From Pectobacterium carotovorum (lineage in GTDB: Bacteria; Pseudomonadota; Gammaproteobacteria; Enterobacterales; Enterobacteriaceae): a stretch of 64,000 nt of DNA. Below are positions 26,230-31,300 of the stretch, piece after piece. The DNA is taken from positions 4,526,001 to 4,590,000 of the forward strand of contig CP066552.1 of assembly GCA_016415585.1 (NCBI GenBank). The letters are read 5' to 3'. Position numbers and translations under genes: made by a program. The notes under the pieces are model-generated. The model was not told the origin of the DNA and searched no databases. It saw nothing but the letters and a program-made list of their open reading frames with translations. Within the stretch, counting starts at the first letter, position 1. Every line of letters starts with the position of its first letter.

Positions 26230-26293
26230 ATTTTTAGCTTAATTAAATTTTTATAGGGTGAGTTATTGCTTAACTGGTTTCAGGTTTTTTCAA

Positions 26294-26438
26294 CTAATCC
26301 AAGTATTTGCATATCATAAAGAAGTTCTTTTTTATCATTTTCAGATGAACATTTTTTTGTTTCACTGCGTTAAGAAATTCATGAGCATTATTGCTCTTTT
26401 TTCTGCGAAAAGCCGCCTTCTATGAAGGCGGAGTTCTG
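26294..26438 (-). pseudogene. Decayed fourth CdiA toxin-tip start
   Basis: Directly after the cdiI3 stop, in the same frame, the sequence reads QNSAFIEGGFSQKK, the junction peptide of the other modules. It then loses bases where the others encode GIxGAHNAD. After the shift a frame resumes with NNAHEFLNAVKQKNVHLK, clearly related to the third toxin (DEFFNAVKQNNVKV), and stops soon after. It is a truncated, frameshifted remnant of another toxin tip. No immunity gene of the same family follows. Confidence 0.75.
26412..26432 (-). repeat. Module-junction inverted repeat 3
   Basis: GCCGCCTTC-TAT-GAAGGCGG lies 7 bp after the cdiI3 stop. On the minus strand it is followed by CTTTTCGC, terminator-like. 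It matches the repeats at 27176-27196 and 27971-27991, except that the outermost base pair is lost. Confidence 0.75.
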
Positions 26439-26792
26439 TTAGTTGGATATTTTATCCAGCAAAAATTTAACCTTATCAGCATCTTCTGGATGAATTTTTA
26501 CATATCTCTCACAAGCTAATCGAATGTATTTTAAAGCAGTCTTCTCTGGAACAATGACTTCACCTTCCCATACGCCAAACATTATTCCTTCAAAATGGAA
26601 ATCAGTATCTAATTCCTGTAAGTCTGGAAATTGGCAATATGTTTCGTTGATTACAAAACCATGTTTTTTTATAATACTATCTATGCCATAGATGAATTTA
26701 TTCTGAAGATTTAATGAATTAAAAAAATCCATTATAATCCACTCGTTGTCATTGTTATAATTTGTTTTTTCAAAAATATATTCGTTAGTCAT
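26439..26792 (-). CDS. cdiI3: CDI immunity protein, third module
   Basis: A 117-residue acidic protein whose ATG overlaps the stop of the third toxin module (ATGA). It shares a core with the other two immunity proteins: CQFPDLQELDTDFHFEGIMFG, then VIVPE, YIRLACERYVKIHPEDADK and LLDK. The N-terminal 50 residues are unlike the others. No signal peptide is present, as expected for a cytoplasmic toxin-neutralising protein. It is the most diverged copy and presumably pairs with the third toxin. Confidence 0.75.
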   Translation of the reverse strand: MTNEYIFEKTNYNNDNEWIIMDFFNSLNLQNKFIYGIDSIIKKHGFVINETYCQFPDLQELDTDFHFEGIMFGVWEGEVIVPEKTALKYIRLACERYVKIHPEDADKVKFLLDKISN

Positions 26793-27202
26793 TTTGTCAC
26801 CGGAAAGAAATTAGTTACAGACCCAGTTTGTTGATCCAGATAAACCTGAAATTTTACACCGCCAGCATTCTCCGTATACTCTCTTCTTCCTAAGGCAATA
26901 GCGTTTTTATAGCCTAAAGCTGCTGCTTGTTGTCCTAGTTCTAATATTCTTTTATCACTAAATATTTGGGGGTCATAAACTGTTTTTTCAAAAATTTCTG
27001 TTTTATAACCTATTACATTTCCTTCTCTATCTTTCGCAGGTATTTGATATTTAATATGTGTGATCCCTTCAACTTCGCTGTGAGTTTGAGATGAAACCTT
27101 TACATTGTTTTGTTTCACTGCGTTAAAAAATTCATCAGCATTGTGTGCACCACCGATCCCTTTTTTCTGCGAAGAGCCGCCTTCATAGAAGGCGGCATAT
27201 TG
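26789..27202 (-). CDS. Orphan CdiA C-terminal toxin module 3
   Basis: An open frame of 137 codons plus stop begins in frame directly after the cdiI2 stop and reads QYAAFYEGGSSQKKGIGGAH then NADEFFNAVKQNNVKV. It lacks its own secretion domains and an obvious ATG with ribosome site until a GTG at 27118. The body (GITHIKYQIPAKDREGN, KTVYDPQIFSD, GVKFQVYLDQQTGSV) is homologous to the toxin tip of cdiA over its full length, with clearly lower identity than module 2. Such orphan cdiA-CT fragments are silent reservoirs that can replace the active tip by recombination. It overlaps its immunity gene by 4 nt. Confidence 0.75.
   Translation of the reverse strand, partial: QYAAFYEGGSSQKKGIGGAHNADEFFNAVKQNNVKVSSQTHSEVEGITHIKYQIPAKDREGNVIGYKTEIFEKTVYDPQIFSDKRILELGQQAAALGYKNAIALGRREYTENAGGVKFQVYLDQQTGSVTNFFPVTK
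27176..27196 (-). repeat. Module-junction inverted repeat 2
   Basis: A perfect 9-bp inverted repeat GCCGCCTTC-ATA-GAAGGCGGC (plus strand) starts 6 bp past the cdiI2 stop. It encodes AAFYEGG in the reading frame of orphan toxin 3. Confidence 0.8.
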
Positions 27203-27997: not shown

Positions 27998-28363
27998 TTA
28001 GTTAGGGGTTTTATCCAACAAATTTTTGATCTTTTCTGCATCTTCTGGATGAATTTTTACATATTTTTCGCAGGCCAGACGGACATATTGATAGCAGATT
28101 TCCTCGCTGACAATTACAGTTTCGTCCTCTGTAGGAGGATACCCTATTGCAAATTCAACACCCTCAAAATGCTCACTTTCATCATAACTATTCATGTCAG
28201 GAAAATTACAGTAAGCACCATCAACATTTAGTGTCCATTTTCTAGATAATAATTTTATAGCCTCTAAAAATCTGTCTTCTTCATACATCCTATTGAAATA
28301 GGATACGATGATTAGATTTAATCCGGAATCGATATCCTGTTGCCTAAATAGTTCCTTTTTCAT
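27998..28363 (-). CDS. cdiI1: CDI immunity protein of the active cdiA
   Basis: A 121-residue acidic cytoplasmic protein 8 bp downstream of cdiA, the expected place for the cognate immunity gene. It contains YCNFPDMNSYDESEHFEGVE near residues 51-70 and a helical C-terminus (YQYVRLACEKYVKIHPEDAE). This pattern recalls proteins annotated as ribonuclease-toxin immunity CdiI, but I cannot confirm the Pfam family. It should bind and inactivate the toxin tip of the neighbouring CdiA in siblings. Codon usage and AT content are like the rest of the array and unlike the flanking core genes. Confidence 0.82.
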   Translation of the reverse strand: MKKELFRQQDIDSGLNLIIVSYFNRMYEEDRFLEAIKLLSRKWTLNVDGAYCNFPDMNSYDESEHFEGVEFAIGYPPTEDETVIVSEEICYQYVRLACEKYVKIHPEDAEKIKNLLDKTPN

Positions 28364-28371
28364 TATTAACC

Positions 28372-31300
28372 TCAGTTAGGATGATAATTTCTCACCATTC
28401 CAGTAGTTTTATCTACATATATTCTAAAACTAATGCCATCGACAATTTCGCTGGCTTGCCCATTCTCACTTTTCATTGCTACTTTGTAGGCTTGCGCAGC
28501 TGCCTGTTGCCCAAGCTCTACTATTTTTTGATCACTAAATATTTTAGGATCGTAAATAGTCTTTGTTTCAACGGAGTTTTTATATTCCCCCGTGAGGTTT
28601 CCAGCTCGATCTTTAGTGGCTATAAGATATTTCACCTCTGTGATCCCCTTCACTCCAGTAGGGGTTTCACTAACAATTTTCACATTATATTCCTTTGCTG
28701 CTGCATAAAACGCATCAGCATTGTGTGCACCACTGATCCCTTTTTTCTGCGAAAAACCATCTAACGTTGCGATATGCTGCGGTAGGCCAATTTTAAAACT
28801 TATCCCATCAGGATAAGTAAATGTCGTGCCTTCCTTGGTGGTCATCATGATGACTTTTTCACCAGAAGTCAGCTGAATAATTGCGGTTTCTCCTGCAACC
28901 GTATTGATCCCTTTGTATCCCGCCACCGTTGCAGTAATAGCATGCAACTGCATGACAGAGTCATAGCGTGATGCCACTTCATCCCAGCTTTTCCCTGTGG
29001 CTTTTGCAATTGCGGTGATCGCTGCATCTCTGGTAATGCTACCAGCGTCTAGCCCTTGCAGTATCTTGTCTACATTTGCCGCATCTTCGGGGTATAAGTC
29101 CCGATAAACCAAACGATAATTGACGTTTTTACCATAGCTATCGAGAGCTTGCTGTGCCTGTACTAACAAGGTTGAGCAGTTTGCGATGGATTTGTTACCT
29201 TGGGTGCAAATATCTCGAATTGCTTTGTCACGCTCCTGATCCAATCTCCGAGTCGCGGCTAATTCTTTTGCTTCATCTGGAGTTAACGTCCCTGCTTTTT
29301 CTTTACGTTCCAGAATGCCTTTCTTTTCGGCTTCTGCTGCGCTTAGATAGTTGAAGTTAACCGCAATCTGACCAGCATTAGCGCCGCTGTAGGCCCCTTG
29401 CGCTTTCCCTGTTGCGATTGCACCAGCTAAGCCACCAATGAATCCAGCAGATTCACTGACTTTTCTCGACCAGTTTTCATCCATGGAAAAACTGTTACCT
29501 AATGCATAGGCTGCAAGTTCCGCGCTTAACGCACCCACGGCGGCACCTTTCACATTGCCACCTCTAATTTCGGCGGTAATCGCAGATATTGCGCCGTAGC
29601 TTAATGCTTTACCGAACGTATTTTGGATGAAGCCTTCTCTGGCGTTGTAGTTGATTCCTTCAGCACTGATTTGGTTAGAAATATTAGATAGCAAGGCCGT
29701 AGTAAAATTATCTTTAAAGCTACCACCATTAATGGCAGTACCAAGGCCAGAACTAATAACCGACTGCCCGGCGACGCGTTGAGCTATCTTGCTCCAATCA
29801 TTATTACTGAGGATGGGAAGTTTGGTTTGGGCTGAACCTACGCCTGTGTTGCTGACTTTTAATACGCTGTCGAAACCAGCCAGCGCACCACCCACAGCCA
29901 TTGAAGTCACCAGCGACTTAACGGAAGCGCTGCTACCCAGTGTTTGCAGAGTTTTGGTAAGGTTGCCTTTGTTATCAACCAGTGCGACTGCCGCCTGTGA
30001 TGTCAGTGCCGTCATGCCTGAGTAAACTGCACCAGACATCACGGTTGCTGTCATACCTGTTGCACCAGCGGTATTAACCGCTGCCGTTGCTGCCATCCCT
30101 GCCAATCCCGCTCCTGCGGTAACTGCTGCAACGGCGATAGCGATAACCGCTCCCACCACTGGATTCAGGCTTTGTGTGGTGTGGTTCCAACTACTGTAGG
30201 CATCCTGTACTGCGTTCCATTGCACGTCTTTACGGGTATTCAAACCTTTAAGCCATGTTGCTCCAGGTGTATTGCTGAGAGTCAGTAACGCGTTTTGCAG
30301 TGACTGAGCATTGTGTGTTTTTACGGCAGCGGAAACTCCTGCTGTGGCATCAACGGTAAACTGACCACCTGCATGGATAGATGGCAATAGCCAGGTGTCC
30401 TTGGTGTATCCCCTGTCGGAATTTTTAATGAAAAAACCTTTCGATGTGGTGATGGTTTGCTCGAACGTGGTATTTTTTACCGCTTTAAAGATAACCTGAC
30501 CCTTAGTACTGGTGAGTTTGGCGTTCTTGCCCGCCGCTATTTTGCTGGCTTCATAGATGCTGTCATCGCGGCTAAGCAGATTGATGTTACTTCCAGCGGT
30601 AAACTCGGTTACTTTGTTGCTGACATTATGGTACGTCCGCTTGCCCTTTTTCTTCTTGCCATACCAGGTGCGGCTGCTGGATTCTGTTTCATAGTGATTG
30701 GTTTCTTCCATGGCCTGCGCATACAGGAATCCCCCTTTAGCAGCAACATCCATTGCGCCTTTTGCAACTAAACTCGTTGCCTGGAATAAGATGCTGCTGT
30801 TGGATAAAAGCGTCAGCACACCACCGCTGTTTAGCACGACATTTTGTTGTGTCGTCGACTCATTAAATTCATTATTTCCTTCTCGCATCGCGTAATTTTT
30901 TAGTGCGTTAAATTCCATCTTTCCACGGGAGCTTAACGTCATATCCCCTATTGAGGACAATGAACTTCCGGATGCAATGAAATCGCCATTTGTGGCGAGG
31001 GTAAGATTTCTCCTTGCATTAATCTGAGTGATAACATGGCGATCGTCTCTATTGTCCTCATCAGGAGTGGCGATGGCAGAATACGCGGTAGAAAGTAATG
31101 AAAGAGTGTTGCCAGCCAAGAGGGTAATATCACTGGCGGATAAATTCGCTGATTTAATATTAGTCGCACCTCCTGAATTGATCAGTAAATATCCAGTGTT
31201 AATCCTACTTGATAATGAAGGTGTAAGTGTTGATGGCAAAAACTCGTTGTAGACATTACCTACTGTTTTAATATCGATAGTTACTATGCCATTAGCAATT

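What the first reader, a model, noticed from the sequence alone, without database searches (positions are those of the whole stretch)
26289..28770. Tandem array of three same-family CdiA toxin-tip/immunity modules plus a decayed fourth
Downstream of cdiA-cdiI1, two more complete toxin-tip/immunity pairs and one truncated tip follow head to tail on the same strand. Unlike many orphan cdi arrays, which mix unrelated toxins, all of these belong to one toxin family (GxGAHNxDxF at the start, KTxYDP and SDxxIxExG in the middle, YxDxxTGxV at the end) and one immunity family. Every orphan tip begins exactly in frame after the previous immunity stop. This looks like local duplication and divergence to create new specificities, a reservoir for tip switching.
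Basis: partly seen in the sequence, partly recalled or inferred. Interest (0 to 1): 0.85.

Follow-up and report, generated by a model that had tools for sequence, protein, structure and literature searches.

The report
Stacked spare toxin tips beside cdiA
A plant-associated bacterium keeps two apparently silent spare versions of its contact-delivered RNA-cutting toxin tip, each with its antidote gene, behind the active one; related bacteria carry nearly the same versions as their active tip, so the stack looks like a record and a possible source of toxin switching rather than copies made on the spot.

Summary
Behind a complete cdiB-cdiA-cdiI operon (Pectobacterium) lie two intact orphan tip/immunity pairs and a tip remnant. 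All tips are EndoU nucleases (relatives of PDB 5HKQ_A); all immunities are CdiI_4. The 'reservoir' reading is partly supported, 'local duplication and divergence' is not: orphan tip2 is 99% identical to the tip on a full-length P. versatile CdiA whose backbone nearly equals this one, and tip3 is 95% identical to that of a P. brasiliense CdiA. Trees reject a single origin of the three tips (p-AU 0.003) and three immunities (0.002), though not of modules 1 and 2 alone. Best reading: a stack of allelic tips displaced one after another and stitched by near-identical anchors. New detail: the orphan tips start between two active-site histidines (STECO31 H187 and H204). The first stays in cdiA; the 'in-frame' codons before each orphan are a terminator-like hairpin, so an orphan product should lack H187. 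The 'decayed fourth' tip is fused to the 3' end of an older, unrelated immunity gene. Orphan cdi arrays and reshuffling are known (Poole 2011); this is a same-family variant with its junction inside the catalytic domain.

The parts
33685..35367 (-). cdiB, outer-membrane TpsB transporter (560 aa)
   Evidence: PF03865 ShlB 3.4e-90, POTRA_2, POTRA_3
28372..33645 (-). cdiA, 1757 aa: TPS domain, DUF637, PT-VENN, DUF6862, EndoU tip 1 at the C terminus
   Evidence: tip aligned to 5HKQ_A
28774..28776 (-). codon of the cdiA histidine equivalent to STECO31 H187, upstream of the segment shared with the orphans
   Evidence: alignment to 5HKQ_A; active-site list of STECO31 in PMC9086364 (passage); present in 64 of 64 readable homologues of 82
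28375..28761 (-). tip 1, EndoU nuclease domain from DGFSQKKGISGAHN on; its first ~95 nt are the left anchor shared with tip 2
28001..28363 (-). cdiI1, CdiI_4 immunity, 121 aa
27971..27991 (-). terminator-like hairpin, 9-bp stem, between cdiI1 and orphan tip 2
   Evidence: RNA fold -17.2 kcal/mol, z -4.5
27590..27997 (-). orphan tip 2, EndoU, open frame without start codon; nuclease-derived part begins at about 27976
   Evidence: 99.2% identical over 128 aa to the tip of P0148
27206..27568 (-). cdiI2, CdiI_4 immunity, 121 aa
27176..27196 (-). terminator-like hairpin between cdiI2 and orphan tip 3
   Evidence: RNA fold -17.0 kcal/mol, z -4.5
26792..27202 (-). orphan tip 3, EndoU, open frame without start codon; nuclease-derived part begins at about 27178
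   Evidence: 94.6% identical over 129 aa to the tip of P0183; model matches 5HKQ_A with TM 0.86
26442..26792 (-). cdiI3, CdiI_4 immunity, 117 aa; its ATG overlaps the stop of the tip-3 frame
26413..26431 (-). terminator-like hairpin after cdiI3
   Evidence: -13.8 kcal/mol, z -2.9
26349..26412 (-). remnant of the 5' end of another EndoU tip, closest to tip 3 (93% over 41 nt)
26280..26363 (-). 3' end of an older immunity gene of another family (F1, weakly Imm2-like), fused to the tip remnant
   Evidence: 88% DNA identity (428 of 484) of 26363-25880 to G011 L075 6293-6776; families
25996..26229 (-). 77-aa ORF (F8), shortened relative to a 102-aa relative at the same place in G011
   Evidence: no family above cut-off, none for the relative
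24026..25819 (+). gamma-glutamyltranspeptidase gene, conserved flank of the site
   Evidence: PF01019 2e-175; same flank in 10 fetched loci

Best explanation
The array is a stack of alternative EndoU toxin tips of one cdiA gene, built by successive allelic displacement rather than local duplication. Incoming DNA from a related cdi locus recombined with the resident locus through two anchors: the start of the EndoU domain (GFSQKKGISGAHNAD...EYN) and the 3' third of cdiI with its terminator-like hairpin. The newest tip and cdiI sit on cdiA; older ones were pushed downstream as pairs, each cut at the start of the nuclease domain. Shown here: anatomy, families, near-identity of both stored tips to tips on orthologous full-length CdiA proteins, separate ancestry of module 3 from modules 1 and 2, the anchors, no ATG/GTG/TTG before the second catalytic His codon, and no H187 equivalent in the orphan frames. 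Inferred: that orphan tips are not made, that a product would be inactive, that cdiI2 and cdiI3 are expressed and protect against kin with those tips, and that anchor recombination can load a stored tip onto cdiA while deleting what lies between. The active toxin is expected to be a metal-independent ribonuclease acting in the cytosol of neighbouring bacteria, as STECO31 CdiA-CT cuts tRNA-Glu; its substrate here is unknown.
For: Tip2 against the tip of P0148 (P. versatile, 1757 aa, 26 member sequences): 99.2% over 128 aa. Tip3 against that of P0183 (P. brasiliense): 94.6% over 129 aa. CdiA residues 1-1610 are 98.2-99.8% identical to P0148 in four blocks and 75.0-97.1% to P0183, while residues 1657-1757 are 74.3 and 48.5%. 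P0183 and P0151 equal the window in residues 1611-1628 (100%), then differ. G009 DNA is 97-98% identical over 28920-28681, 50-77% over 28680-28141, then 92 and 87% at the cdiI end: a cassette exchanged between two anchors. Tip1-tip2: 32 consecutive identical codons at the start, reached in 0 of 20000 permutations; same codons among shared residues 39 of 42 in the anchor against 19 of 46 in the rest (post hoc split, Fisher 2.7e-7). One-clade tests reject common origin of all three. The distal end matches the array end of G011. GC 0.33-0.39 against about 0.55 in ggt.
Against: No recombinant was observed. DNA of the P. versatile and P. brasiliense strains with tips 2 and 3 was not available, so direction and breakpoints there are read from protein only, and that those CdiA proteins are expressed is presumed. 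P0148 differs from the window in residues 1611-1628 (55.6%), so it is not simply a deletion product of this array. Tips 1 and 2 (with P0113) as one clade are not rejected (p-AU 0.37), nor imm1 with imm2 (p-AU 0.08); in the uncut tip tree tip1 and tip2 group (SH-aLRT 97), which the shared anchor may cause. Alignments are short (72-135 columns). Specificity, expression and immunity function are untested. Promoter-like sites are not in excess (6 found, 11.2 expected).
Confidence: 0.68

Rival explanations
1. Immunity bank: the orphan modules are kept only because cdiI2 and cdiI3 protect against neighbours that deploy tips 2 and 3; the tip pieces are passive leftovers and never return to cdiA.
For: Orphan tip frames have no ATG/GTG/TTG before codon 34 or 29 and lack the H187 equivalent, while cdiI2 and cdiI3 have intact frames that pass the family cut-offs. 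Poole 2011 reports an orphan CdiI produced while the orphan tip does not appear to be made (passage). Kin with tips 2 and 3 exist.
Against: Tip2 is unchanged over 127 of 128 residues compared and tip3 has an open frame, although neither seems to be translated; recent arrival would also explain that.
Confidence: 0.27
2. Local duplication and divergence: one ancestral module was copied in tandem here and the copies diverged to make new specificities.
For: Same families, regular 785-795 nt spacing, alike junction hairpins, tips 1 and 2 group in the uncut tree and are not rejected as a clade.
Against: Clade tests reject all three as one group; tips 2 and 3 exist on full-length CdiA elsewhere; imm1 is 77-78% identical to proteins of Yersinia, Kalamiella and Pantoea but 68% to imm2. 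Near-identity is confined to anchors, which fits recombination better than whole-module copying.
Confidence: 0.05

Closest known systems
Orphan cdiA-CT/cdiI modules downstream of cdiBAI (Poole et al. 2011, PMC3150448; passages and Discussion read)
   Same: Silent tip/immunity pairs behind cdiBAI, mostly without translation start, same tips fused to full-length cdiA in other strains, proposed reservoir for switching; a Pectobacterium wasabiae locus is among those drawn, and one orphan related to the main tip (39% identity) is reported.
   Different: Theirs usually start at the VENN motif with the whole CdiA-CT. Here they start inside the nuclease domain, between two active-site histidines, and three complete pairs share one toxin family.
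EndoU CdiA-CT/CdiI of E. coli STEC_O31 (PDB 5HKQ; Michalska et al. 2018, not held here; known to me from the review PMC9086364, passages)
   Same: Same toxin and immunity families; tip3 model matches 5HKQ_A (TM 0.86, 56% identity).
   Different: Tips 2 and 3 are 77 and 51% identical to tip 1; substrate unknown; tip3 has F in place of the H321 equivalent, as do 4 homologues in the list.
Sequential displacement of T6SS effector-immunity modules in Vibrio cholerae (Kirchberger et al. 2017, PMC5361080; abstract and passages read)
   Same: New pair added next to the delivery genes, older immunities kept downstream, members related to those of other strains.
   Different: There the old effector is replaced and only its immunity retained; here the old tip is kept with its immunity.
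Orphan Rhs switching in Salmonella (Koskiniemi et al. 2014, PMC3967940; abstract read) and silent mafB-CT cassettes (Jamet et al. 2015, PMC4287609; passages read)
   Same: Stored C-terminal cassettes without a start codon; recombination onto the full-length gene reported (Rhs) or supported by genome comparison (Maf).
   Different: Different delivery systems; in what I saw no cut between catalytic residues is described.
Homogeneous polyimmunity loci (Zhang et al. 2012, PMC3482391; passages read)
   Same: Tandem immunity genes of one family.
   Different: Those are said never to be interrupted by toxin genes or cassettes; here each immunity has its own tip.

Membership tests
CDI (CdiB/CdiA two-partner) system | CdiB with POTRA and ShlB barrel, CdiA with TPS domain and pretoxin domain, immunity gene next to it | tested here: met
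Orphan cdiA-CT/cdiI module | downstream of cdiBAI, tip without translation start, followed by its immunity gene | tested here: met
   no ATG/GTG/TTG before codon 34 (tip2) or 29 (tip3); cdiI2, cdiI3 follow
Orphan cdiA-CT/cdiI module | starts at the VENN/pretoxin motif (usual, not strict) | tested here: not met
   orphans start at GFSQKKG of the EndoU domain, behind a terminator-like hairpin
Orphan cdiA-CT/cdiI module | same tip found on full-length cdiA elsewhere | tested here: met
   tip2 in P0148, tip3 in P0183
Orphan cdiA-CT/cdiI module | functional toxin and specific immunity | not testable with these tools
   needs expression assays
EndoU toxin (PF14436, STECO31 type) | family score and fold | tested here: met
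   tips 2, 3 above cut-off; PF14436 not reported for full-length CdiA, tip1 by alignment to 5HKQ_A; tip3 fold
EndoU toxin (PF14436, STECO31 type) | His-His-Lys active site (H187, H204, K261) | tested here: inconclusive
   all three equivalents present for cdiA tip 1; orphan frames have H204 and K261 equivalents but not H187
CdiI_4 / NF033826 immunity | family score above cut-off | tested here: met
   3 of 3

The most novel reading that the evidence does not exclude
A split-active-site cassette system: the cdiA backbone permanently holds the first catalytic histidine, and interchangeable silent cassettes hold the rest of the nuclease plus the matching antidote. A stored tip should be inactive even if mistakenly translated, and becomes a whole enzyme only when recombination at the anchor places it on cdiA, so that safe storage and family-restricted exchange follow from one junction position.
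Probability: 0.2. Interest if true: 0.7.

Novelty: new variant of a known kind. Interest (0 to 1): 0.48.

Why it matters
Orphan cdi tips have been known since 2011, but why tips are kept as well as immunities was left open there (PMC3150448, Discussion), and what sets which tips can be exchanged is not clear. Here one CdiA backbone in one genus carries at least four EndoU tip alleles (window, P0148, P0151, P0183), two of which are stored in the window. The anchors are defined to within tens of bases and the junction lies between catalytic residues. That makes two questions testable: whether stored tips are inert by construction, and whether anchor homology limits exchange to one toxin family.

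Tried and rejected
Assembly artefact: rejected; single-contig genome, diverged copies, related structures in G009 and G019. Hairpin as a module-specific recombination site: rejected as first choice. The exact pattern occurs in 6 of 25 Pectobacterium genomes at 10 places, 5 of them at EndoU modules and 5 elsewhere; those 5 (L086-L090) have a run of at least 5 T after the stem on one strand (read by eye). No tip or CdiI_4 match (E <= 1e-4) exists in G007, G022 and G024, and in G009 only on another contig. Hairpin-coded AAFYEGG as toxin sequence: rejected, because it stands in place of the conserved pre-tip. Promoters for orphan genes: sites not above chance. Terminator scan: it reported the junction hairpins on the plus strand only; on the minus strand only 4 T follow, so they would be weak terminators. 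Other copies in the genome: none. Distribution: tip in 3 of 25 genus genomes, immunity in 4 of 25, one of them a fragment with stops, tip in 9 of 394 order genomes. Among the 23 named loci and the loci no other array of two or more intact EndoU/CdiI_4 pairs was seen, but many of these loci are short; G301 has two EndoU tips in tandem, in an Rhs-like context. A joint fold of toxin and immunity was not run. Trees: short alignments, many forks unresolved.
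Full report
What is there. The window lies in a single 4.74-Mb contig. The genus is Pectobacterium, judged by same-genus genomes that coincide with named records (G009 = P. brasiliense CFBP8736 contig 47, contig length 36115 in both; G019 = Pectobacterium sp. CFBP8739 contig 16, 131760 in both). On the minus strand run cdiB (ShlB and POTRA domains), cdiA (1757 aa; TPS, DUF637, PT-VENN, DUF6862) and cdiI1. Behind them follow orphan tip2, cdiI2, orphan tip3, cdiI3, a short tip remnant, a small ORF and, on the other strand, ggt. 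GC is 0.33-0.39 from 26 to 29 kb and about 0.55 in ggt.

Families. Tips 2 and 3 pass Pfam's cut-off for EndoU_bacteria; the immunities pass CdiI_4 and NF033826. PF14436 was not reported for full-length CdiA, but tip 1 aligns to 5HKQ_A, the CdiA-CT of E. coli STEC_O31, over 139 aa at E 3.2e-47. Tip 2 gives 6.2e-43 and immunity 1 hits 5HKQ_I at 1.6e-45. An AlphaFold2 model of orphan tip 3 (mean pLDDT 88.5, residues 1-7 below 50) matches 5HKQ_A with TM 0.86 and 1.8 A. The stored domain thus looks intact apart from its first residues. Tips 1 and 2 were not modelled.

Not local duplicates. Orphan tip 2 is 99.2% identical over 128 aa to the tip of P0148, a 1757-aa CdiA named as P. versatile. Orphan tip 3 is 94.6% identical over 129 aa to that of P0183, a CdiA named as P. 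brasiliense. P0148 is 98.2-99.8% identical to the window's CdiA in each of four blocks up to residue 1610, but 74.3% in residues 1657-1757. P0183 and P0151 share residues 1611-1628 completely and then fall to 48.5 and 49.5% in the tip. So one orthologous CdiA backbone carries at least four tip alleles, two of which the window strain stores. That the other CdiA proteins are expressed is presumed from their full length. Trees without the shared start (72 columns, 75 rows) reject the three tips with P0113 and P0183 as one clade (p-AU 0.003), but not tips 1 and 2 with P0113 (p-AU 0.37). Immunities (123 rows, quick tree) reject all three (p-AU 0.0019), but imm1 with imm2 is not rejected at 0.05 (p-AU 0.08). 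The groups were named after a first tree. imm2 pairs with P0036 of P. aroidearum; imm3 groups with L045 and L040 from other genera. imm1 is 77-78% identical to proteins of Yersinia, Kalamiella and Pantoea, 68% to imm2.

Anchors. Tips 1 and 2 share 32 consecutive identical codons at the start, reached in 0 of 20000 codon permutations. Among shared residues, codons agree in 39 of 42 in that part and in 19 of 46 later; the boundary was chosen after looking. The immunity 3' ends are similarly close (17 of 19 codons against 9 of 22 at the start, also post hoc, p 0.003). Window and G009 DNA are 97-98% identical over 28920-28681, drop to 50-77% across the rest of the tip and the first part of cdiI (28680-28141), and rise to 92 and 87% at the cdiI end. 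The exchanged cassette is thus the variable nuclease part plus the variable part of the immunity, bounded by two conserved anchors. In an array the right anchor, a hairpin and the left anchor form the repeat between cassettes.

Split active site. The review PMC9086364 lists H187, H204, K261, T262 and H321 for STECO31 (passage seen). In the alignment to 5HKQ_A the two histidines 17 residues apart are the one in LPQH and the one in GAHN of cdiA; the mapping is by my counting on that alignment. The first is present in 64 of the 64 homologues in which it could be read; 18 of 82 were too short or lacked the motif used to find it, and many of the 64 are near-identical. In both orphans the frame before GFSQKKG (GSSQKKG in tip 3) is not the pre-tip but the hairpin, read as AAFYEGG, and the H187 equivalent is absent. 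The first ATG, GTG or TTG lies at codon 34 (tip 2) or 29 (tip 3), after the GAHN histidine at codon 20. Any product of an orphan frame should lack at least one active-site histidine. That it is inactive is inference. Tip 3 has F where STECO31 has H321; so do the CdiA proteins P0183 and P0186, so this looks like a natural variant.

The hairpin. CCGCCTTC-NNN-GAAGGCGG occurs 3 times in the window (0.03 expected), folds at -17.2, -17.0 and -13.8 kcal/mol (z -4.5, -4.5, -2.9), and also lies behind the EndoU immunity genes of G009 and G019. In the genus it occurs in 6 of 25 genomes, 5 of 10 places being away from EndoU modules and followed by runs of T on one strand. It is best read as a terminator of cdiI, weak here because only 4 T follow. 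It explains why each orphan frame opens right after the immunity stop.

The fourth remnant and older history. 26363-25880 is 88% identical (428 of 484) to the end of the cdi array of G011, L075: the 3' end of an F1 immunity gene, then the F8 ORF. Another F1 member of that array has a weak Imm2 match below cut-off. The tip remnant joins it within an AT-rich stretch similar in both, so it looks like a deletion joint. In the arrays of G011 and others F1 goes with a deaminase-type tip (PF14424, 1.5e-27 for one member from G017). The site therefore seems to have held unrelated modules before. Of 25 genomes, 15 have a relative of the CdiA 3' part (E <= 1e-30). Of 17 regions fetched, 10 show ggt beside the cdi genes. 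Of these 10 plus the window, 4 hold at least two ORFs of one presumed immunity family (window, L074, L075, L079). G019 has no match to the CdiA 3' part, and a damaged copy of module 3 (96% over 73 aa, 98% over 95 aa) remains next to ggt.

How it probably works. A new tip-immunity pair enters by homologous recombination through the anchors and takes the place behind cdiA; the former pair is pushed downstream, its tip cut at the anchor and lying behind a terminator-like hairpin. Order fits age: the tip on cdiA is newest, tip 2 differs from its counterpart on P0148 at one residue of 128, in the anchor, tip 3 differs from that on P0183 at about 5% of residues, and the fourth is a stump. Stored immunities may protect against kin with those tips; Poole 2011 reports such production in EC93 (passages). 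Stored tips could return by anchor recombination; for Rhs in Salmonella evidence of such switching is reported (abstract of PMC3967940).

Prior work. Orphan cdi modules, their presence on full-length cdiA elsewhere and the switching model are from Poole 2011, which also draws a Pectobacterium wasabiae locus (passages; Discussion). Displacement stacks are described for T6SS by Kirchberger 2017, silent cassettes for Maf by Jamet 2015, and tandem immunities of one family by Zhang 2012. In searches, which cover open-licence papers and whose listings I mostly did not open, I saw no paper describing this array or orphan tips cut between catalytic residues; Michalska 2018 could not be read.

Noticed in passing
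L075 (G011), 1904-6723: A longer array behind cdiA: five related F1 immunity ORFs with deaminase-type tips, other ORFs between, then F8 and ggt.
   Followed up: partly
L085 (G017 contig 28), 1-6000: Mixed array with repeated deaminase-type tips and immunities and a CdiI PF07262 protein; no cdiA recognised in the fetched stretch.
   Followed up: partly
L037 and L048 (G301): Two EndoU tips in tandem behind Rhs-like DPLGL sequences (motif recalled), a possible parallel to the cdi stack in an Rhs system.
   Followed up: partly
L084 (G019), 5346-6521 of the reversed locus: A transposase-like ORF (IS30-like as recalled, not scanned) directly before a damaged module-3 copy; no CdiA 3' part in that genome.
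   Followed up: no
window 25996-26229: Small ORF F8 of unknown family, shortened by a stop against its G011 relative.
   Followed up: partly
window 26789-26792: The start codon of cdiI3 overlaps the stop of the tip-3 frame (ATGA), as in translationally coupled genes, though tip 3 has no start of its own.
   Followed up: no
P0034 and P0036: Two CdiI_4 proteins of P. aroidearum, both listed with a longest contig of 171490 bases, suggest another same-family EndoU array.
   Followed up: no
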